Below are positions 51,863-64,000 of a stretch of DNA of 64,000 bases, in pieces. The stretch lies in the IMG/VR virus record IMGVR_UViG_3300036770_005682, positions 62,001 to 126,000 of that record. One strand, given 5' to 3'. The translations under genes and the position numbers were made by a program. Below the pieces are notes generated by a model, which saw nothing but the letters and a program-made list of their open reading frames with translations, was not told the DNA's origin and did not search any database. Origin of the DNA: a virus. How positions within the stretch are numbered: the stretch's first letter is position 1; each line of letters begins with the position of its first letter.

Positions 51863-52095
51863 GATGGAACTTCCTCTTTTTTCATAGTGACAGAAGTCAC
51901 ACAATTCTTTGAGCAATATCTGGATTCGCCAATAATGCGAATCATCCCACGAACAGTTTCGCGGCCACATTTGTCGCAGGCGCACCTAGCTGTCTTGGAA
52001 CCAATGAACATGGTGAGTGTGCCATATATTGCTGGGTCTTCAGCCTTTTGCTTCGACTGTCCTGCAATCGGTTTTGCTGGTTTTTTGCCGGCCAT
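51859..52095 (-). CDS. Small zinc-ribbon protein
   Basis: A 78-residue basic protein with CACDKCGRETV and YCSKNC, a four-Cys zinc ribbon in the C-terminal half. It overlaps both neighbours by 1-4 bases within the lysis cassette. Function unknown. Confidence 0.65.
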   Translation of the reverse strand: MAGKKPAKPIAGQSKQKAEDPAIYGTLTMFIGSKTARCACDKCGRETVRGMIRIIGESRYCSKNCVTSVTMKKEEVPS

Positions 52096-52325
52096 TATTC
52101 TTCTCCATCGCTTTTGCTCTTACCGGCGAAATATCCGCCAATGATTCCGATGAGACCAACTAGGGCATTCTGTACCAGGGCTATGGCTTCGGGGTTTGTC
52201 GCAACTGTTTCACCGGTCTGGTTCTGTGCATACAGCAGAGATGCATACTCACCCAAGACAACAAGCCCAATGAAACCCAAAATACCCAGGGTTATATAAA
52301 TCATGAGCTTGTCTTTTATTTTCAT
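52095..52325 (-). CDS. Holin-like membrane protein
   Basis: A 76-residue protein with two hydrophobic helices (MIYITLGILGFIGLVVLG and ALVGLIGIIGGYFAG), a connecting polar loop and a charged tail KSKSDGEE. This is a class II holin topology next to the endolysin. Confidence 0.65.
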   Translation of the reverse strand: MKIKDKLMIYITLGILGFIGLVVLGEYASLLYAQNQTGETVATNPEAIALVQNALVGLIGIIGGYFAGKSKSDGEE

Positions 52326-52573
52326 TAGAATTCGCCTTTTGCGTGGTCCCTGATGTGCTGGTCAATTTTTTGCTCTGTCCGCTCCACTCCCTTTTCCACT
52401 CTGTCAATGGAAATACCGAGAGATTTACCTAAGTTGTCAATCTTGTCGACAACAAAGTTGTGGTCTTGTTTATTTTCATCCCAGCGAGAATTGTTTTTTC
52501 TTCTCCCGGACTCAACCATGGCTACAAGAATCGCGCCAAAGGTCGTGATAAGTGCAACGTATACGGCTTCCAT
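52325..52573 (-). CDS. DUF2746-like lysis accessory protein
   Basis: An 82-residue protein: one N-terminal membrane helix (VYVALITTFGAILVAMVES) then a charged coiled tail (VVDKIDNLGKSLGISIDR, IDQHIRDHA). This matches the DUF2746 pattern found beside actinophage endolysins. Confidence 0.7.
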   Translation of the reverse strand: MEAVYVALITTFGAILVAMVESGRRKNNSRWDENKQDHNFVVDKIDNLGKSLGISIDRVEKGVERTEQKIDQHIRDHAKGEF

Positions 52574-52588: not shown

Positions 52589-53389
52589 TCAGCCGAACAT
52601 GGCCTTCCATGTTTTAGGACCGACCTTGGTGCCTTTTCCTAGGCCGTTCTTCTCGCGCCATGCGGATACTGCCTGGCCTGTCTTTGCCCCAAAATCGCCG
52701 TCTGGCTTGGCTCCGACCTTTGCTTGAACGAGTTTAACCGCTTTTCCCTTTGAACCAACATCCAGGTCACCAGGGAATGCAGGGCCGGATGGGCTTGCAG
52801 CAGGGGCAGCAGGTGCGGCTGGGGCAGCAGCAGGTGCAGAGCCGCCACTAACAGCGGCAGGAGGGGTATCGCCGCAGACGTACTGCCAGTGCCATGCTTC
52901 AAACTCTGGTGACTTCGGGTTATCCCCTTGGAGGTAGAAACCGTACTTTGGTGCGTTTTCGCACATCCATTCGAGGCACTTCCCGCCCATCGAGGTGAGT
53001 TTGCCTTTTACTTCGTAACCAAGGTCTATCGCGAGACCAAATCCATGATTTGAATTGCCAGGGGTTGAGCTTGGGGCTTTACCGGGCTTGAGGTACCAAG
53101 TCTTGCCTTCGTACTTACGGGTGACCTGTGGTTTTCTACCCATGTCTTTCTCGCTGTAACGGTCTTTGAACATTGCAAGCTGACCCTCGAACGGGCGGAA
53201 GTCGCCGACGTTGCGCAGTTTGAACCCGGCTGCAAGTGCTGCGTCATACATCATGTTGAATGCATCAGCAGCTTCTGTCCACATGACACCGCCGGTCTTG
53301 ACCTTTTTTAGCATTTTCGGCGTCAACTTGCCGTTGCCTACTTTTTCAACTTCCTTAGGTAGCACCATCTTTTTGTATGGATACTTCAT
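52589..53389 (-). CDS. Endolysin: M15 (VanY-type) peptidase with peptidoglycan-binding domain
   Basis: A 266-residue protein from ATG 53389 (AAAGGAACAAG upstream). SNHGFGLAIDLG and EAWHWQYV carry the zinc ligands of M15 D-Ala-D-Ala carboxypeptidases. An Ala/Pro linker (about residues 190-215) leads to a PG_binding_1 repeat (VKLVQAKVGAKPDGDFG). It should cut peptidoglycan stem peptides at lysis. No signal peptide, so a holin is needed. Confidence 0.88.
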   Translation of the reverse strand: MKYPYKKMVLPKEVEKVGNGKLTPKMLKKVKTGGVMWTEAADAFNMMYDAALAAGFKLRNVGDFRPFEGQLAMFKDRYSEKDMGRKPQVTRKYEGKTWYLKPGKAPSSTPGNSNHGFGLAIDLGYEVKGKLTSMGGKCLEWMCENAPKYGFYLQGDNPKSPEFEAWHWQYVCGDTPPAAVSGGSAPAAAPAAPAAPAASPSGPAFPGDLDVGSKGKAVKLVQAKVGAKPDGDFGAKTGQAVSAWREKNGLGKGTKVGPKTWKAMFG

Positions 53390-53491
53390 CTTGTTCCTTT
53401 TAAGTCGTAGTGGACGTATGCGAGAAGGCATATGCATATTTTACAACACAAATAAAGCTACTTGCGTTAACAACTAAAAGTAAGAAGTGTA

Positions 53492-54925
53492 CTATTTGTA
53501 AGACTTCTTGACGCGGCCAAGAGTAGAAATTGCCACGCCGATACACATAATCCACAAGCCAATAATTAAGGTCCGCCAAGAATCGCTACCAGTCTCGGGG
53601 AGTGGTCCGTGACTATGAGTGCTGTGGTCATGGACTGTCGTGGTTGTTGATTCCACCATCCGCCCGTCAACTGTTTGCACAAGGCTCGTTGTTGGGGCGA
53701 CAGTCGTAGTATCCGCAACTGTCGTTGTGGGCGCATCGGTCGTAGGAACAGTTGTGGGCGCAACAATTTCAGGGGAAGTAGTTGCGGGTGCAACTGTTGT
53801 AGTCGTAGGGGGTTCTGTCGTGGTCGTCGGAGGATTCCATGAAACCGTCGCAGATACGGTTTTTGCCACACCGTTTACTGTTGCTGTGGCCGTGTAAACA
53901 GCCGTGCCCTGAGTGTTTGTACGTACAGTTATTGTTGCAACTCCACTTGAGTCGGTTGTCGCTGTGAATGTTTGGCCAGCATCAGGGCCGGCGCTCACTG
54001 TCACCGTTACCGTTACGCCAGATTGCGGAACGCCAGCCAATGTTTGTGCGGTTGCTGTAATTGTTAGGTCCTCTCCGGCGTTGGGATTCGTAGGAGAAAT
54101 AGCCAAAGTGAAAGAACTAGGAAGAGACACCGAGCCGCCACCAATCGATACGGCCACTCTTGCGCTAGTTGGAGAAGGGTATGGATAGTCAACTAGGGTT
54201 TTTAGAGTTCCTACGTTCCCAGTAAAGTATCCATGCCAACAGGCAGCAGTCATTTCATTTGTTAGACCAAAATCTGCCATTCCATCCGGTGTTGCGTCTG
54301 GGCCACCGTTGCAACCACCATTGTTATACACAGCATTTGGTAAAAGCGCAGTCAGCCAGCCGTATGTTCCCATGTTTGCAAACAATCCACCGCCAGAGTT
54401 GACGAAGTCTGCTATCACTTCTGCGTTGGATGTAAACACTGATTCAACAGCAGTTGGGCGACTCCAGTTGTCTGGTATCCATATGATTGCTGGCCTAAGA
54501 GTGTTTATGTTTGAAAAAAAGTTATTTACTTCTGTAGCGGAGTTGTAGAAATTAACTGTTGGCGCTGCGGTGAACTGCCCTAGATACTTTGTGGTCAGCA
54601 GTGTGTTCCAGTTTCCGCCACACGAGTTTGTTGTGCCATTTGTTCCCAGAATAGCTATGGTGCCATTGTTCACAGAACTTACTGAGTCATAGGTTTTCTT
54701 CAATACCTGGGCTATGTATCCCCATGTTCCTTCGTATCCAGAATGGCAAACCGGGTCCATTCCGTCCAAGACAATTGGCCCGCCTGTCCCAGATGCATTA
54801 GCAACGCTAATTATTTCAGTGTTGGTAAACGGAATAGACGAACCGAGCGATAGGCTCGAGAACACCATGATTGCTCCAAAGACGACAAGCAATCTGGAAA
54901 GTGACTGTTTAATATTATTTTTCAC
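53492..54925 (-). CDS. Secreted LPETG-anchored surface protein
   Basis: A 477-residue protein. N-terminal signal peptide (LLVVFGAIMVFSSLSLG), a folded region of about 270 residues, a bacterial Ig-like domain (ITATAQTLAGVPQSGVTVTV ... GVATITVRTN), a Thr/Pro-rich stalk, then LPETG (about 442-446), a membrane helix and the basic end KKSYK. This is a complete sortase substrate. It would be displayed on the host wall, perhaps to change adhesion or exclude other phages. Confidence 0.85.
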   Translation of the reverse strand: MKNNIKQSLSRLLVVFGAIMVFSSLSLGSSIPFTNTEIISVANASGTGGPIVLDGMDPVCHSGYEGTWGYIAQVLKKTYDSVSSVNNGTIAILGTNGTTNSCGGNWNTLLTTKYLGQFTAAPTVNFYNSATEVNNFFSNINTLRPAIIWIPDNWSRPTAVESVFTSNAEVIADFVNSGGGLFANMGTYGWLTALLPNAVYNNGGCNGGPDATPDGMADFGLTNEMTAACWHGYFTGNVGTLKTLVDYPYPSPTSARVAVSIGGGSVSLPSSFTLAISPTNPNAGEDLTITATAQTLAGVPQSGVTVTVTVSAGPDAGQTFTATTDSSGVATITVRTNTQGTAVYTATATVNGVAKTVSATVSWNPPTTTTEPPTTTTVAPATTSPEIVAPTTVPTTDAPTTTVADTTTVAPTTSLVQTVDGRMVESTTTTVHDHSTHSHGPLPETGSDSWRTLIIGLWIMCIGVAISTLGRVKKSYK

Positions 54926-55133
54926 TAGAATCTTCCTCGTCTTCTTTTTTCATTGCTTGCCAGAGGGAACCAACAAGATGTACGACCAGGGCAGCTACCG
55001 AAATCCAGATGCCCTGTGAGCGAGTGTCTCCAGAGAGGGTTATGAGAACCGTTCCGGTTCCAGCCAAAGTCCAAGCAAGGGCGTGAAACTCTGTCCCTAA
55101 CGCCTTGACAAACTTAATGACGAAACCTTTCAT
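54915..55133 (-). CDS. Small two-helix membrane protein
   Basis: A 72-residue protein with ALAWTLAGTGTVLITLS and WISVAALVVHLVGSLW, and an acidic tail. It overlaps both large secreted-protein genes by 1-11 bases, so all three are expressed together. Confidence 0.65.
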   Translation of the reverse strand: MKGFVIKFVKALGTEFHALAWTLAGTGTVLITLSGDTRSQGIWISVAALVVHLVGSLWQAMKKEDEEDSSEK

Positions 55134-56881
55134 TACTTCCTACCCCCGGTGGTAGCTACAGAAACATTAGCTAATCCCACAGTAGATAATACAACACTTA
55201 CAGTCACTATGGCGCGACGCGCGCCAACAGAAACCACGGAACCAGTTGGTACATAGGTGTCAAACTGTCCGCCGTATACGTTGATTTCTTCCTCGAAGGC
55301 TGCCCTAACCTCCTCGGGCGCAGACTGGACTGCTTCAATTATTTGTTCGGCTTGTTCTTCCGTAAGTTCTTCAACCGGAATGGCTGCAAAAACCTCAGCA
55401 GCCTGCTCTTCCGAGAGAGCCTGTACAACTTCGGTGCTAGTTGCCAACTCCAGAGCAACTTCATCTGATATTGCTTCTTCTTCAATAAGTTTGGTAAGTA
55501 TTGCATCAATCTGTTCCTCGCTAGCGTCCCCCGATAAGAGAACGTCAACAGCAGCAGATATGTTTTCGTCTGTAATCGGCTCATTTAGTAAGTCATCTAC
55601 CGCGTTTTGTATTTGGACCGCTTTTTCTTCATCTTCGTTGTCTGGCGCTGGTTCAGGTAACGGAGTCTGCGGACTCGGCTCAACAGGTGCCTCCTGTGTA
55701 GTCGTTGGTGTAATTATAGGTTCTGGCTCAGTAGTGGTAGTGGTAATAGGTTTTAGAGAACTCGTAGTAGACGGAATAGTTGTTGGGGTATCTGTCGTAG
55801 TTGGTTCTTGAGTAACTACCGGAGCCTCTGTAGTAGTTGGCTCAGGCGCGACAGTAGTTGTGGTTGTTTCTGGGGCAACAGTGCTAGTGGTTGTACTAGT
55901 AGTGGTGGTAGTACTGGTGGTAGTTGTACTGGTGGTAGTTGTACTGGTGGTGGTGGTGATTACACCCCCTGAATATTCAAGAACAATGTAAAGTCGTTTA
56001 TACGTCCCACCACATGGGTCGCCGAATATGGAATTATTAGAAGAAATTGTGGCAGACGATAAACCAATAAACGATTCAGATACTTGCTGTATCGTGTTTG
56101 TCGCGTGACATGGACCCTGCGTGAACTGTCCATTCAGTCCTTCGGGGTTGCCGTAGCTAGCAAAAACAACAGAGGTAAACGTCCCATTGTTTGGTGCCTC
56201 TATGAATAAATCCCAACCTTCATCTGCTTGCGCCCAAACCATATTGTCCGTCAATTGATAGGGAACATTGTCAACAGGGAAAACAGGAGCGGGCGGCGAA
56301 TAAGCGCATGGACGACCCCCTCCGCCACCAGAACATTCCTGCCATCCAATGTCCGATGTCCAGTTATTGGTCCCATTGAATTCCGTATTTTGGAGAAGTT
56401 CATCTCCGTCAACCGTGAGTGAAGCGGATTCAATTCTTGTTCCGTAGTTACCGGCCCAAAATTCCCCATCGCTTCCGTATATCGAAACCCTGACAGTCGC
56501 TACAGCAGACCAACCTGCGTCGCCAACTCCGTTTTTATCAACAGTCAATGAAAAATCAGAAAAAACAGTCGAATCAACAGAGATATTCCCAGTTGAGTGT
56601 TGGTATATAAGTCCGCCACCTTGCCCGTAGAGCAATATGCCGATATTTAGTACGTCTGAAGATGGTTTCCAGTCCTGTGTTTCAGAAGCACTGACTTTTA
56701 GTTCTAACGTAGATTTGCCATTGAGGCTGGTGTACACATCCTGATATATGTTTGCACCCTGGAATCCAAACACAAAAACATTTCCGTCAAGAGCATGAGC
56801 TGTCCTGGGGATTGCTGAAACTGATATCCATGCGCACAATGTCAACAGAATCCAAATACCTCGAATACTGCGCAATCGCAT
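55133..56881 (-). CDS. Secreted protein with SUEL-type lectin domain and Thr-rich stalk
   Basis: A 582-residue protein. Signal peptide 1-30; a beta-rich region; then FASYGNPEGLNGQFTQGPCH ... FGDPCGGTYKRLYIV, the pattern of galactose/rhamnose-binding (SUEL) lectins, near 235-305. A poly-Thr stalk and an acidic helical region follow, then a hydrophobic end (AIVTVSVVLSTVGLANVSV). It should bind sugars outside the cell. Anchoring is by the C-terminal helix rather than LPxTG. Confidence 0.8.
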   Translation of the reverse strand: MRLRSIRGIWILLTLCAWISVSAIPRTAHALDGNVFVFGFQGANIYQDVYTSLNGKSTLELKVSASETQDWKPSSDVLNIGILLYGQGGGLIYQHSTGNISVDSTVFSDFSLTVDKNGVGDAGWSAVATVRVSIYGSDGEFWAGNYGTRIESASLTVDGDELLQNTEFNGTNNWTSDIGWQECSGGGGGRPCAYSPPAPVFPVDNVPYQLTDNMVWAQADEGWDLFIEAPNNGTFTSVVFASYGNPEGLNGQFTQGPCHATNTIQQVSESFIGLSSATISSNNSIFGDPCGGTYKRLYIVLEYSGGVITTTTSTTTTSTTTTSTTTTTSTTTSTVAPETTTTTVAPEPTTTEAPVVTQEPTTTDTPTTIPSTTSSLKPITTTTTEPEPIITPTTTQEAPVEPSPQTPLPEPAPDNEDEEKAVQIQNAVDDLLNEPITDENISAAVDVLLSGDASEEQIDAILTKLIEEEAISDEVALELATSTEVVQALSEEQAAEVFAAIPVEELTEEQAEQIIEAVQSAPEEVRAAFEEEINVYGGQFDTYVPTGSVVSVGARRAIVTVSVVLSTVGLANVSVATTGGRK

Positions 56882-56896
56882 TACACCTCCAGACTA

Positions 56897-56955
56897 GCTA
56901 ATTTTATCATTAGCCAGCATGGCTAATGGGGTCATTCTTTCGTTGTATAATTAGC
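56897..56955. promoter_or_regulatory. Divergent promoter/operator region
   Basis: GCTAAT-N6-ATTAGC (56897-56914), overlapping TTAGCC-N5-GGCTAA (56910-56926), and another ATTAGC at 56950-56955 right after an extended -10 TGTATAAT (56944-56951). This looks like a multi-site operator between secreted and tail-fibre genes. Confidence 0.55.
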
Positions 56956-57865: not shown

Positions 57866-59071
57866 ATGCCGTTTCTTGGAGGACGCGGACAGTCATCTAG
57901 GGGTTATTTCGGTGGTGGAACAACGCCTGACGCCCCTACCTCATTGTCCTCGACTGCCGGCGACCAGCAGCTATTCATAGCATTTACCGCCCCAGCGTTC
58001 AATGGCGGCCTTGATATAACCAACTACGAATATGCCATATCGTCCAACGGCGGTTCGACATACAGCGTGTGGACACCGATATCTCCTCCAGACACAACGT
58101 CGCCAGTAACAATTCCAGGCTTAATAAACGGCACCACATATTACGTTAAATTGCGTGCAGTAAACTCTCTTGGTGGCGGCGTTGAATCCGCTGCACTGAG
58201 CACCAACACAACTCCATACACAGTCCCATCAAGCCCCACTGTCACAAAAACAGCAGACACAGATACCACAGTTACGTGGACATGGTCGTCCAACGGTAAC
58301 GGCGGAAATGCAATTACACAGTGGGGATATAGTCTATCTACAGACAATGGGGCCACATGGGGAGCAGAAACAGTAGTCGGCGCAGGAACTACAACATTTA
58401 GCAAGACCATTCAAAGCGGCTCTACGTATGATACGAGTAGCTACCTTCTTAGGGCTAGGGCTTACAACGCTGCAGAATGGGGTCCATATGGGCAGGCAGC
58501 GTCGCAGTCTGTTCCATGGGTCTACGAAACGCGCAATACAGTCGAGACGGACACTAGCTGTACAGATGGAAGCTGTTCTTCAACATCGTCGACTTCACGC
58601 TCGTGTGGAACATGCGGTACAGAGTCTGGAACAACAACCGGCACAAGAACAAGAAGCAGAACTCGCACTAACGTAGAATACAGATACACAAAAACTGGAT
58701 ACACGGCATCCGCATGGGAGGTTTCAACGTATGGCGAGTGGTCTGCATACACATACACTGATTGGTCTTACTCGACATCCTGGAGTGGAACATGTACCGA
58801 AAGTGGATGCGGCGGTGCGGGATGGACAAATGTCGGTTCAGAATATCATGGACAGTACGTCACTGCTAGCGGCTTAACTCTATTTATCACATACTGGGAC
58901 CTCGATGCAAACAATACTGGCCCAACTGGATACGGTGGTTCAATCCAGAACGGATGTAGCGAGTCTACGCCATCTGGATACACTCAGGCCGTTTACTACC
59001 TCTACAGATGCACAGCAACTGGAGCACTATGCTTCTCCTATGCTGGATGCTGGGCTGTACCGGACACATAA
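57866..59071 (+). CDS. Tail-fibre-like protein with FN3 domains
   Basis: A 401-residue protein. SRGYFGGGTTPDAPTSLSST begins two fibronectin-type-III repeats (about residues 25-210). The rest is Thr/Ser/Tyr-rich with many Cys (SCTDGSCSSTSSTSRSCGTC), likely a receptor-binding or adhesive tip. 6 bases after the previous gene. Confidence 0.75.
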   Translation: MPFLGGRGQSSRGYFGGGTTPDAPTSLSSTAGDQQLFIAFTAPAFNGGLDITNYEYAISSNGGSTYSVWTPISPPDTTSPVTIPGLINGTTYYVKLRAVNSLGGGVESAALSTNTTPYTVPSSPTVTKTADTDTTVTWTWSSNGNGGNAITQWGYSLSTDNGATWGAETVVGAGTTTFSKTIQSGSTYDTSSYLLRARAYNAAEWGPYGQAASQSVPWVYETRNTVETDTSCTDGSCSSTSSTSRSCGTCGTESGTTTGTRTRSRTRTNVEYRYTKTGYTASAWEVSTYGEWSAYTYTDWSYSTSWSGTCTESGCGGAGWTNVGSEYHGQYVTASGLTLFITYWDLDANNTGPTGYGGSIQNGCSESTPSGYTQAVYYLYRCTATGALCFSYAGCWAVPDT

Positions 59072-59081
59072 AGGAACATGA

Positions 59082-59666
59082 ATGTCGCAAACCTCGAATA
59101 AAGAGATGCTCAGGCTAACTGGATTCCCTAGGAGCGGGAACAAGTTTGTCATATCCGCAGTAAAGCTTCTTTACTTCCCAGAGCTAGACCATAATTCTAC
59201 ATACCACTCACCAGATGGTGTATTTTCTAATACGGAATATCCTAATTTATTCGTTGTTAGAAATCCAAAAGATGCAGTTTCATCCTGGGTGTATCATGCG
59301 CGACACAATATGGGGGAGAGGAATAACCCCAACTACGCGCCACCTGGTTCCCTTTTGTTTTATGAATCATTTCTGTTGGCAGCCCTAAACAATATAGAAA
59401 ATGTCTGCATATTGTCATTCGACAGCTTTACTAACGATATTGAATACATAAAACAAAGAATAAACAATGCTTTCATGATTGAAAATACTGGCGAAGCAAC
59501 GGTGCAAGATGTAAAAGACTATATGACAACTAATTCGATGGAACTAAGCTTGCCCTCAGACGCAGACCTAACAGGGCTAAGAATTGAAACAGAGTCAGAC
59601 CCCGAATATGCAAGAATATACAGCCTGTATCAAGACATTATAGAAGCACACGACATTCAGGGCTAG
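59082..59666 (+). CDS. Sulfotransferase-like protein
   Basis: A 194-residue protein. LTGFPRSGNKFV (about 12-23) fits the 5'-phosphosulfate-binding loop and VVRNPKDAVSSWVYH the 3'-phosphate-binding RxPxDxxxS motif of PAPS-dependent sulfotransferases. It would transfer sulfate from PAPS to a glycan or small molecule. The next plus-strand gene encodes an APS-kinase-like domain, a likely PAPS source. Confidence 0.8.
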   Translation: MSQTSNKEMLRLTGFPRSGNKFVISAVKLLYFPELDHNSTYHSPDGVFSNTEYPNLFVVRNPKDAVSSWVYHARHNMGERNNPNYAPPGSLLFYESFLLAALNNIENVCILSFDSFTNDIEYIKQRINNAFMIENTGEATVQDVKDYMTTNSMELSLPSDADLTGLRIETESDPEYARIYSLYQDIIEAHDIQG

Positions 59667-61638: not shown

Positions 61639-62438
61639 TTTTTTGTTCCTTCTTCTTGCTGTCGCAATTCTTCATCAATTTTGGCTTTTTCTTGGCGGTA
61701 AGATTTTCCAGCATCAGACCTGTCGCCAACAAGATGGCCTATAGGCATAATGTATCCAGAACCAAGCCCTCTACCTGTCGCTAGTTTAAATTTGTCTTCG
61801 CTTTCAAATATTATTTCAGTTAGTTCAGGAGAGCGTTTAAAAGGAATGATGCGCGCTATCGGCGTATTCCATTTTATTACAAAGGGCTGGTCTCCCTTAA
61901 GGTTAAGAACAATATTTGCATTGTGATAAAAATCTGTATGCACAACTGCTGGCAAAACGTCGTAGTGCTCATTTGGCTCATACGGAATAGGCATAATTAT
62001 AGATGACCAACCTGGTGCTGTGATGAAGCACCAAGGGTTGACCAGTTTTGGGTATTCGCTGTTTTCTATTTTTCGCACGCTTGTCATTGGGCATGCTCCA
62101 GTTGATTCATATGAGAAAGGGCTATTTTCGAACTTTAGCGGTTCTGTTGAAAAATCCCCCATAGCGAATTCCCATCCAAGCCCTATCGGTGATGGCCTGA
62201 AATGAACATTTGTCCACATCGGTATCGTGACACCCATTGTGAGCAAATCCTGTGTACCTGCACATTTTCTAATAGAGCCTTTATGTTTACCGGCTGACTT
62301 GAACCATCCAGGCAAATTGACCATTGAATTGATGTATGGTGCGGCATCAAATAGACGTTCGTCTTCTGGAACTATGACTATTTGCCCAGGCTTTGGTTTT
62401 GTTATTTTTGAATAACCTTTGTTACTGCCGAATTTCAT
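61611..62438 (-). CDS. Hypothetical protein of the halogenase-oxygenase operon
   Basis: A 275-residue protein from ATG 62438 (GAGG upstream). LPGWFKSAGKHKGSIRKC and GVTIPMWTNVHFRP recall proteins encoded beside cyanophage halogenase/oxygenase genes. A basic C-terminus (NWKQKFKKK) follows a helical RQEKAKIDEELRQQEEG. No enzymatic motif recognised. Confidence 0.65.
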   Translation of the reverse strand: MKFGSNKGYSKITKPKPGQIVIVPEDERLFDAAPYINSMVNLPGWFKSAGKHKGSIRKCAGTQDLLTMGVTIPMWTNVHFRPSPIGLGWEFAMGDFSTEPLKFENSPFSYESTGACPMTSVRKIENSEYPKLVNPWCFITAPGWSSIIMPIPYEPNEHYDVLPAVVHTDFYHNANIVLNLKGDQPFVIKWNTPIARIIPFKRSPELTEIIFESEDKFKLATGRGLGSGYIMPIGHLVGDRSDAGKSYRQEKAKIDEELRQQEEGTKNWKQKFKKK

Positions 62439-63897
62439 TGAGCGCCTCTGCATGGTCTACCAATTCATGGTTGTATCGTCCAAGCCTGAATTCGGACATG
62501 TCTTTCGAAACCATAACCCGTATATCTAGTCTGTCTATCGCCCGGGATGCTACCGCTTCGTTCAGCACGCCCTGGCCCTGGGCAACATGGAACATGTGTG
62601 GCCCCAGAAACATCTCTCCATGAATATGTGAGTAATCGTTTCTTGTTGGTGGACGCTCTTGCCATAGCTCGAGCATTTCGGCAAGTGAGTCATTGACTTT
62701 TGCGTTTTTAGAAGCCACCCAAAATTCTGAGTTAGTTTTGTCAGTGTAATAGTGCAACCTAATCATTGACAAAATATTGTCCATCATGATGGATATCGTC
62801 TTGTTGTAGTGCTTCTGTGATGCAGTGTGCACTTTGTCGTATGTTGCAAGATACGGTATCAAAAGTTTTATTTGTTGAATTGTTGAGCCGATGCTTGTTG
62901 CCTCAAGCGGCTCTACAAAGCCTGAAGCAAGACCTACGGCGACGCAGTTTTTCACCCATTGTTGCTCGAGGTAACCGGGGTCAAATTTAAAAACGCGCGG
63001 TGACGTTGGCTCCACTCCAACCATATCTGCGGCTTCACTGATTGCTTTTTCATCTGAAATAAAGCCAGATGAATAAACGTACCCATTACCCCGACGTTCC
63101 TGTGTTGGGATTTCCCATATCCATCCAGCGCTGGCTGCCCGTGCTCTCGTATATGACTTGATTTTTCCTGATGGGTCCGATGCTGTCGGGAAAGCAATTG
63201 CAGAATCGCACAATAGGTATTCTGAGAAGCTGACCCAATTTGCATCTGATATTTTGGATATCAGAGTTCTAGAAAAACCAGAAGCATCAACCCAAAAATC
63301 AGCTTGAAGCGTTAGTCCATCTGTGGTTTTTACTTCCGTGATTGTCCCATGCTCTGGTTCGACTAGGCAATCTTCAACCTCTCCGTCAACCATTTTGATT
63401 GCCCTACTGAAGCACAGTTCGATAAAAAATGCATTCAATTTGAAAGTATCAAAATGAAACTGGTTCACATTGTTGTGAAGATTGTGTCTCTGTACTTTGT
63501 CTTGTATGAGGCCAGCAGATGACGTTTGACTGGTGATGCTTCTTCCAGATTCAAGTATCCCCATGTAGGTGGCATAATGCCCCCACGCAAAAACATTTTC
63601 GTCTCCAGTGACGCTGTGGAAATAGTCAGGGAAAGCGTTCGACCACCCCTCAAAACGTATCCCATATTTATGCGTGGCTGCAGTCTTGCTTAATAAATCA
63701 GCCAGCGGTATGTCGCATACCTGCATAAACTGCTTCCAGTGCTCCGTGCTTCCCTCTCCAACGCCAACTATTCCAATCTTGCTAGAAGACAAAATAGTTA
63801 TTTCAGCACGTGGGAAGGCGCGTCTAAGCATTAAGGCCGAAATAAGGCCAGCTGTTCCGGAGCCAATTATTCCAATAGAAAACTTTTCTCTATTCAT
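62422..63897 (-). CDS. Flavin-dependent tryptophan halogenase
   Basis: A 491-residue protein. GSGTAGL (12-18) binds FAD, K77 in THKYG matches the catalytic Lys79 of PrnA, and GWIWEIP (258-264) is the WxWxIP halogenase motif that excludes monooxygenation. GFVEPLEATSIG is also conserved. It should halogenate an indole or aromatic group using reduced flavin. It overlaps the next gene by 17 bases. Confidence 0.9.
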   Translation of the reverse strand: MNREKFSIGIIGSGTAGLISALMLRRAFPRAEITILSSSKIGIVGVGEGSTEHWKQFMQVCDIPLADLLSKTAATHKYGIRFEGWSNAFPDYFHSVTGDENVFAWGHYATYMGILESGRSITSQTSSAGLIQDKVQRHNLHNNVNQFHFDTFKLNAFFIELCFSRAIKMVDGEVEDCLVEPEHGTITEVKTTDGLTLQADFWVDASGFSRTLISKISDANWVSFSEYLLCDSAIAFPTASDPSGKIKSYTRARAASAGWIWEIPTQERRGNGYVYSSGFISDEKAISEAADMVGVEPTSPRVFKFDPGYLEQQWVKNCVAVGLASGFVEPLEATSIGSTIQQIKLLIPYLATYDKVHTASQKHYNKTISIMMDNILSMIRLHYYTDKTNSEFWVASKNAKVNDSLAEMLELWQERPPTRNDYSHIHGEMFLGPHMFHVAQGQGVLNEAVASRAIDRLDIRVMVSKDMSEFRLGRYNHELVDHAEALNEIRQ

Positions 63898-63899
63898 GC

Positions 63900-64000
63900 T
63901 CAACGCTTTATGAGTGTGGTGACGGCAACAAAACCCTGTGCATGATAAATATCAAAGTCACCCCTATTTTTGATATTGAGATGTGTTTCTTTTGTAAAAG
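63900..64000 (-). CDS. Partial gene, C-terminal end only
   Basis: An open frame from the window edge to TGA at 63900-63902, translating as ...FTKETHLNIKNRGDFDIYHA, then QGFVAVTTLIKR. It stops two bases before the halogenase ATG. Too short to identify. Confidence 0.45.
   Translation of the reverse strand, partial: FTKETHLNIKNRGDFDIYHAQGFVAVTTLIKR

What the first reader, a model, noticed from the sequence alone, without database searches (positions are those of the whole stretch)
53492..56881. Phage operon for host-surface display: LPETG protein plus lectin protein
Two large signal-peptide proteins, one ending LPETG-helix-KKSYK (sortase substrate) and one with a SUEL lectin domain on a poly-Thr stalk, are coupled through a small membrane-protein gene and lie beside the lysis cassette and fibres. 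Decorating the infected cell could block superinfection, promote clumping or help released virions stay near hosts.
Basis: partly seen in the sequence, partly recalled or inferred. Interest (0 to 1): 0.7.

Follow-up and report, generated by a model that had tools for sequence, protein, structure and literature searches.

The report
Phage operon for cell-surface lectin display
A large virus of freshwater actinobacteria carries, beside its cell-bursting genes, an operon for two cell-surface proteins (a membrane-anchored sugar-binding protein and a wall-anchored protein) that recurs in many related viruses and probably coats the infected cell, perhaps so that other virions, or its own released offspring, cannot stick to it.

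Summary
In a 137.8-kb actinobacterial phage record, 56881-53492 (-) is a tightly overlapping three-gene operon: a signal-peptide protein with a SUEL lectin domain and poly-Thr stalk, a 72-aa two-helix membrane protein, and a signal-peptide protein ending LPETG-helix-KKSYK, beside the VanY endolysin and holin-like genes.

New here: (1) the small gene is the detached membrane anchor of the lectin protein (fused or linked in 74 of 74 distinct relatives); (2) the head is exchanged (SUEL, PA14, L-type lectin, LCCL), even between phages with near-identical endolysins; (3) the LPETG protein is a conserved family (GATase-like domain, Ig, stalk, His-rich motif), 24 of 25 complete phage members keeping [LM]PxTG; (4) cellular relatives of its domain carry LPxTG, PEP-CTERM or IPTL-CTERM anchors, and the lectin anchor occurs in sortase-bearing actinobacterial genomes. 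Display on the host is far likelier than a virion role. Its purpose is inferred: masking of glycan receptors around lysis fits best.

By-product: in AT-rich relatives the LPxTG and endolysin genes, and other genes of the late strand, are split by +1 shifts at CGG (C|GGN), apparently programmed.

The parts
55133..56881 (-). Lectin-headed surface protein gene (582 aa)
56792..56881 (-). Sec-type signal peptide of the lectin protein (about residues 1-30, ends AHA)
   Evidence: sequence; hydropathy
56312..56794 (-). N-terminal head domain (about residues 30-190, GEFWAGNYG motif), shared with L008, L002, L007, L035; very weak resemblance to F-box-associated sugar-binding domains
   Evidence: alignment A4 (E 0.65, a lead only)
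55985..56188 (-). SUEL (galactose/rhamnose-binding) lectin domain, residues 232-299
   Evidence: Pfam PF02140, E 5.7e-9, 36.7 bits over cut-off 31.4
55646..55954 (-). Thr/Pro-rich stalk (about residues 310-412)
   Evidence: sequence
55214..55639 (-). Conserved C-terminal domain 'ct' (about residues 415-556; FEEEINVYxGxFDxYVPxGSxxxVGxRR)
   Evidence: alignment A3; at least 509 viral stretches; bacterial relatives
55157..55213 (-). C-terminal hydrophobic segment of the lectin protein (residues 557-575)
   Evidence: hydropathy
54915..55133 (-). 'tm' gene, 72 aa, two helices: detached membrane anchor of the lectin protein
   Evidence: fused to ct in 37 and adjacent in 36 of 74 distinct relatives; PHROG 29041 of unknown function
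53492..54925 (-). LPETG surface protein gene (477 aa, GTG start)
54788..54925 (-). Sec-type signal peptide of the LPETG protein (cleavage near ANA-S)
   Evidence: sequence; hydropathy
54116..54784 (-). Class-I-glutamine-amidotransferase-like extracellular domain (residues 48-270)
   Evidence: AlphaFold pLDDT 90; best structural match 6nqc, Z 9.1, rmsd 3.9, 162 aligned; GATases and ThuA-like proteins Z 6.5-7.7; Foldseek E not below 0.001
53843..54082 (-). Ig-like (Big_1 / invasin-intimin type) domain
   Evidence: Pfam Big_1 E 6.9e-6; invasin 1cwv Z 13.2 over model residues 270-367
53636..53833 (-). Thr/Pro-rich stalk of the LPETG protein
   Evidence: sequence
53606..53632 (-). His-rich motif HDHSTHSHG just before the sorting signal
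   Evidence: HDHxxHxHG in 24 of 25 complete phage homologues
53588..53602 (-). LPETG sortase motif
   Evidence: [LM]PxTG in 24 of 25 complete phage homologues
53495..53572 (-). Hydrophobic helix and basic tail of the sorting signal
   Evidence: hydropathy
52589..53437 (-). VanY-type endolysin with peptidoglycan-binding domain (neighbour, same strand)
   Evidence: Pfam VanY 1.2e-17
52325..52573 (-). Small membrane protein of the lysis cassette (holin-like)
52095..52325 (-). Two-helix small membrane protein of the lysis cassette (holin-like)
56908..56928 (.). Perfect palindrome between the divergent operons (possible operator or hairpin)
   Evidence: 1 match, 0.01 expected; noticed after the fact

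Best explanation
The operon makes a two-protein coat for the infected cell, expressed late with the lysis genes. Both large proteins carry Sec-type signals. The lectin-headed protein stays in the membrane through its C-terminal segment and the two-helix partner (one polypeptide in half of the relatives) and holds its sugar-binding head out on a Thr-rich stalk. The LPETG protein is linked to the wall by the host's sortase. The heads bind glycans on the host's own surface, most likely those that serve as phage receptors, so that superinfecting virions, or progeny released at lysis, do not adsorb to the doomed cell or its debris. Shown here: anatomy, conservation, anchor linkage, head exchange, cellular relatives. 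Inferred: export, sortase anchoring, late timing, glycan target, receptor masking. (Display on the host surface alone: about 0.85; with receptor masking as its purpose: the confidence below.)
For: Conserved sorting signal in 24/25 complete phage homologues under purifying selection. The domain's cellular relatives carry LPATG (Actinomycetota; TIGR01167 above cut-off), PEP-CTERM (Nitrospirales) or IPTL-CTERM (Betaproteobacteria): three unrelated surface-sorting routes on one domain. ct-tm in bacterial genomes with other heads (RCC1, DUF285); those genomes hold 4 and 2 sortases, and 48/61 genomes of one family hold them. tm fused or adjacent to ct in 73/74 distinct proteins, about 1.5 kb downstream in the other. 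Sugar-binding or adhesion-type heads: PA14 in 16, SUEL in 5, LCCL in 3, L-type lectin in 1 of 50 non-redundant proteins. Heads swap behind near-constant lysis genes (L058 vs L076: endolysin 96%, ct 87%, head 26%; L056 vs L064: 94/88/21). Lysis-gene homologues near ct in about 64 of 80 loci. Precedent: T5 Llp blocks its receptor to prevent superinfection and adsorption to lysed cell fragments (PMC9586334).
Against: No host, glycan ligand, expression or localisation data. Known superinfection-exclusion proteins are often early and small; these are large and apparently late. PA14 and Ig domains are not proof of sugar binding, and about half of the 50 lectin-type proteins have no recognised sugar-binding head. 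The GATase-like domain has no assigned role. One complete homologue (L100) lacks the LPxTG motif, and three groups (L003, L037, L072/L089) need a frameshift to join signal peptide and ectodomain.
Confidence: 0.45

Rival explanations
1. Accessory lysis proteins: the stalked, membrane-anchored lectin protein grips outer wall polymers and, with the two-helix partner (a possible holin or antiholin), helps to disrupt the envelope or to time lysis.
For: tm sits next to the endolysin in most loci and has two short helices like a class II holin; about 64 of 80 ct loci hold endolysin or holin-like homologues.
Against: Separate holin-like genes already exist in the cassette. ct-tm occurs in bacterial chromosomes away from any lysis gene, with non-lytic heads. 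Fast exchange of heads is not expected of a lysis machine.
Confidence: 0.2
2. Cell adhesion or community function: decorated cells stick to other cells, particles or grazers' glycans, which brings progeny to new hosts or protects infected cells from protists.
For: Stalked, exchangeable lectin heads resemble bacterial adhesins; the Ig domain matches invasin/intimin.
Against: No evidence on ligands; benefits would have to arise within the short late phase before lysis.
Confidence: 0.2
3. Virion proteins: the two proteins are assembled on the particle as decoration or receptor-binding proteins.
For: They lie beside tail-fibre genes; Ig-like and lectin domains are common on virions.
Against: Signal peptides, sortase signal and membrane anchors are conserved and would be pointless on a cytoplasmically assembled virion; cellular relatives are surface proteins; PHROGs gives no structural match for the large proteins.
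Confidence: 0.07
4. Recently captured host surface genes without phage-specific function (cargo).
For: Both modules have cellular relatives.
Against: Only 29-38% identity to the cellular domain but 61-89% among phages, purifying selection, and stable linkage to lysis genes across many lineages.
Confidence: 0.05

Closest known systems
Phage superinfection-exclusion surface proteins (T5 Llp)
   Same: Phage-made, exported, host-anchored protein that stops adsorption to infected cells and lysed fragments (PMC9586334)
   Different: Llp is a small lipoprotein acting on one protein receptor of a Gram-negative host; here large, stalked, lectin-headed and sortase- or membrane-anchored proteins in an actinobacterial phage, next to lysis genes; function not shown
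Gram-positive LPxTG cell-wall-anchored surface proteins (TIGR01167/PF00746 signal)
   Same: Signal peptide, ectodomain, stalk, LPxTG-helix-basic tail; the Actinomycetota relative L045 passes the curated cut-off
   Different: Phage-encoded, next to the lysis cassette, with HDHxxHxHG before the motif; window protein itself does not hit the short curated models
PEP-CTERM / IPTL-CTERM surface proteins
   Same: Same GATase-like ectodomain on L048 and L047
   Different: Different sorting enzyme (exosortase type) and Gram-negative organisms
Actinomycetia phage DSL-LC01 (OQ999401) hypothetical protein WJZ48438.1
   Same: Same head family, ct domain and fused tm anchor; the only one of 50,697 annotated phage records with a match
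   Different: No LPxTG protein found there; not annotated as a surface protein
+1 frameshifting at rare CGG_A / UGG_A codons in glass-sponge mitochondria (review PMC5009743)
   Same: Extra base 5' to a GGA codon at a very rare CGG, as in the AT-rich relatives
   Different: Here in phages and almost only on the late strand; not used by the window phage

Membership tests
Sortase-anchored (LPxTG) surface proteins | N-terminal Sec signal peptide | tested here: met
   Hydrophobic segment 13-31 behind a basic N-terminus, ANA-S site (sequence); no dedicated predictor was run
Sortase-anchored (LPxTG) surface proteins | C-terminal LPxTG, hydrophobic helix, basic tail | tested here: met
   LPETG, helix 452-470, KKSYK; 24/25 complete phage homologues keep [LM]PxTG
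Sortase-anchored (LPxTG) surface proteins | Match to a curated LPxTG-anchor model (a detection aid, not a defining trait) | tested here: not met
   No TIGR01167 or PF00746 hit for the window protein at the thresholds used; the cellular relative L045 does hit
Sortase-anchored (LPxTG) surface proteins | Sortase in the producing cell and covalent wall linkage | tested here: inconclusive
   Host unknown; no sortase in the phage; related actinobacterial genomes with ct-tm have them; linkage not testable
SUEL-type lectins | SUEL_Lectin domain above gathering score | tested here: met
   36.7 bits vs 31.4
SUEL-type lectins | Galactoside/rhamnoside binding | not testable with these tools
   needs a glycan array
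Phage superinfection-exclusion proteins | Blocks adsorption or DNA entry of the same phage | not testable with these tools
   phage is uncultivated
Class I glutamine amidotransferase-like fold (N-domain) | Fold similarity | tested here: inconclusive
   Z 9.1 to 6nqc and 6.5-7.7 to GATases and ThuA-like proteins, but Foldseek E not below 0.001
Holins (tm gene) | Hole formation and lysis timing | not testable with these tools
   two short helices only

The most novel reading that the evidence does not exclude
A widespread, undescribed surface-coat module of freshwater actinophages, related to bacterial surface proteins, is built with exchangeable lectin heads and tied to lysis; and in AT-rich relatives its LPxTG gene belongs to a set of late-strand genes that can be made only if ribosomes slip +1 at CGG (C|GGN), a code-level switch that I did not find reported for phages in the literature I could search.
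Probability: 0.6. Interest if true: 0.88.

Novelty: new variant of a known kind. Interest (0 to 1): 0.62.

Why it matters
Phages are usually studied for how they attach to cells, rarely for how they re-dress the cell they have taken. This module is in at least 509 viral stretches of IMG/VR yet in only one of 50,697 annotated phage records. If it masks receptors, it would explain how phages of abundant lake bacteria avoid wasting progeny on debris, and its lectin heads would be a direct read-out of which host glycans serve as receptors. It also gives a well-defined two-part anchor (ct-tm) that can be tested in a laboratory actinobacterium.

Tried and rejected
Virion-protein reading: set low because of conserved signal peptides and anchors. 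Annotated-phage search for the LPETG protein: no match; for the lectin protein, ct and tm only DSL-LC01. PHROGs for the large proteins: no structural family. First full-length model: structural matches were filled by the Ig domain, so the N-domain was modelled alone. F-box-associated sugar-binding domain for the N-terminal head: only E 0.65 to FBXO6; a lead, not a claim. PDB search with ct: only weak, scattered hits. Promoter scan: five sites, no more than in shuffles, none convincing. Papers: no description of a phage-encoded LPxTG/lectin display module found, nor of CGG +1 shifts in phages; the library is incomplete. Host identification: not attempted beyond WhiB. A raw scan for +1 junction-like sites over all loci was noisy (CGG only 3.9-fold enriched) because it included non-coding frames; homology and per-strand tests resolved this.
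Full report
Setting. The window is 62001-126000 of a 137,811-bp IMG/VR virus record. It encodes three WhiB-family proteins, a family that among 14 control genomes rang only in Corynebacterium, and some of its genes are shared with Actinomycetia phage DSL-LC01, a metagenome-assembled lake phage predicted to infect Actinomycetia. So the host is very probably an actinobacterium; its lineage is not known.

Check of the observation. All claimed features are there. The gene order on the minus strand is lectin protein, 72-aa membrane protein, LPETG protein, then 54 nt, then the VanY endolysin and small membrane proteins. The first two genes overlap by one base, the next two by 11.

The LPETG protein. 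Scanning IMG/VR gave 32 loci with relatives and, with later finds, 28 distinct proteins, of which two are cellular and one is truncated. The aligned phage proteins are 54-72% identical to the window protein and share many invariant residues, among them four cysteines. The stalk behind the ectodomain is unalignable, yet all but one of 25 complete phage members end in [LM]PxTG, a helix and a charged tail, and 24 carry HDHxxHxHG just before it. Conservation of a short motif behind a diverged stalk points to selection for sorting. dN is far below dS (most dS values are saturated). The ectodomain, modelled alone (pLDDT 90), resembles class-I glutamine amidotransferases and relatives (best Z 9.1), although Foldseek E-values are weak; it is followed by an invasin-type Ig domain.

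Cellular relatives of that domain. In genome contigs the same domain (29-38% identity) occurs with Ig plus LPATG in an Actinomycetota MAG, with Ig-like domains in a Chloroflexi MAG, with an IPTL-CTERM signal in a betaproteobacterial MAG and with PEP-CTERM in a Nitrospirales MAG. One domain on three unrelated surface-sorting signals is good evidence that it works on cell surfaces. MAG contigs can be misbinned, so organism labels are provisional.

The lectin protein and its anchor. Its C-terminal ~150 aa ('ct') is conserved where the rest is not. In the 74 distinct ct proteins read here, the small membrane protein ('tm') is fused to ct in 37, is the next gene in 36, and lies behind the LPETG gene in one, L035. 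Topology is consistent in both forms: head and ct outside, C-terminal segment through the membrane, then (in fused forms) a cytoplasmic linker and a two-helix hairpin; this is inference from sequence. So the small gene is the anchor of the lectin protein rather than a coupler between two systems. Heads: of 50 non-redundant proteins 16 have PA14, 9 fn3, 5 SUEL, 3 LCCL, 1 an L-type lectin domain. Heads differ between phages whose endolysins are almost identical, for example L058 and L076 (endolysin 96%, ct 87%, head 26%) and L056 and L064 (94, 88, 21%); pairs whose heads are cut by contig ends are not used here. ct-tm also occurs in two actinobacterial genomes, once beside ordinary chromosomal genes with an RCC1 head, once with a DUF285 head. 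It is rare there (2 of 248 genomes of that order; 1 of 396 in a phylum sample), so the direction of transfer is open.

Sortase. The phage has none. The two genomes with ct-tm have 4 and 2 sortase matches; 48 of 61 genomes of one of their families have at least one. This makes host sortase plausible but does not show it for the real host.

Co-occurrence and timing. About 64 of 80 ct loci hold endolysin or holin-like homologues within 9 kb (counted). LPxTG proteins lie beside the endolysin in separate lineages, including ~193-kb phages, where ct is found elsewhere in the record. Records with the LPxTG protein have ct in 4 of 5 tested; records with ct have the LPxTG protein in 5 of 15. So the lectin part can stand alone and the LPxTG part looks like an addition to it. 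Late expression is inferred from this linkage and from the frameshift class described below.

Function. Display on the host surface I hold at about 0.85. Its purpose is inferred. Exchangeable sugar-binding heads, linkage to lysis and the precedent of T5 Llp, which blocks its receptor against superinfection and adsorption to lysed fragments (PMC9586334), favour receptor masking; lysis accessory, adhesion and anti-grazer roles are not excluded.

By-product: +1 shifts at CGG. While checking why some LPxTG genes lacked a signal peptide in frame, I found that in three lineages (L003/L004; L037/L057; L072/L089 group) signal peptide and ectodomain are in frames that differ by +1, and that the 0-frame codon at the junction is CGG each time, the following GGN giving the Gly expected from intact homologues. 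The VanY endolysin is split the same way in the L072/L089 group and in L007, and homology to intact proteins shows CGG junctions in further genes, including relatives of the window's 57866-59071 fibre gene. In two large records the pattern is strand-specific: G681 + strand 13 of 19 CGG codons at +1 junctions (next codon 3.5%), - strand 1 of 28; G675 - strand 7 of 14 (next 2.1%), + strand 0 of 32; the window's record G000 0 of 116 and 1 of 122 (Fisher P 2e-6 and 6e-5). Of 24 junctions the shifted Gly codon is GGA 19 times; one restores the DYKTG motif of a RecB-like nuclease. The strand with the shifts carries the lysis genes and the large, structural-type genes; the other uses CGG as an ordinary codon. 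The likely reading is programmed +1 frameshifting at a CGG that is slow or unread late in infection, like the CGG_A sites of glass-sponge mitochondria (PMC5009743). Sequencing error is unlikely, as separate assemblies share sites and CGG alone is affected. Translation products are not shown. The window phage does not use this.

Limits. No expression, localisation, ligand or host data; signal peptides and helices were judged by hydropathy, not by trained predictors; several relatives are fragments; counts by locus include related contigs unless called distinct.

Noticed in passing
L003/L004:8820-9010, L037:7864-8030, L072/L089:9874-10070 (LPxTG genes); L089:6587-7367, L007:1712-2585 (endolysin); G681 = L158-L168, G675 = L169-L179: Genes on the late (lysis and structural-type) strand of AT-rich relatives are split by +1 shifts, nearly all at a 0-frame CGG followed by a Gly codon in the new frame (C|GGN, mostly GGA): 13/19 and 7/14 CGG codons on the late strand versus 1/28 and 0/32 on the other strand, none to speak of in the window phage. 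Looks like programmed +1 frameshifting at CGG confined to late genes; glass-sponge mitochondria have similar CGG_A sites (PMC5009743).
   Followed up: partly
53606-53632: HDHSTHSHG just before LPETG, conserved as HDHxxHxHG in 24 of 25 complete phage homologues although the stalk around it is not; a possible metal-binding or sortase-presentation element.
   Followed up: partly
56908-56928: Perfect 9+9 palindrome CATTAGCCA-GCA-TGGCTAATG in the 96-bp region between the divergent surface and fibre operons; only copy in the window.
   Followed up: partly
62422-63903: Tryptophan halogenase (Pfam E 2.4e-100) in the phage fibre region, shared with relatives.
   Followed up: no
59082-59666: Weak sulfotransferase match (E 0.009) just behind the fibre genes; might modify surface glycans.
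   Followed up: no
L100:9633-11042: LPxTG-family protein with the His motif but without an LPxTG motif; helix and basic tail remain.
   Followed up: no
L135:7578-10627: Actinobacterial chromosome copy of ct-tm with an RCC1-repeat head and long poly-Thr stalk, between ordinary chromosomal genes.
   Followed up: partly
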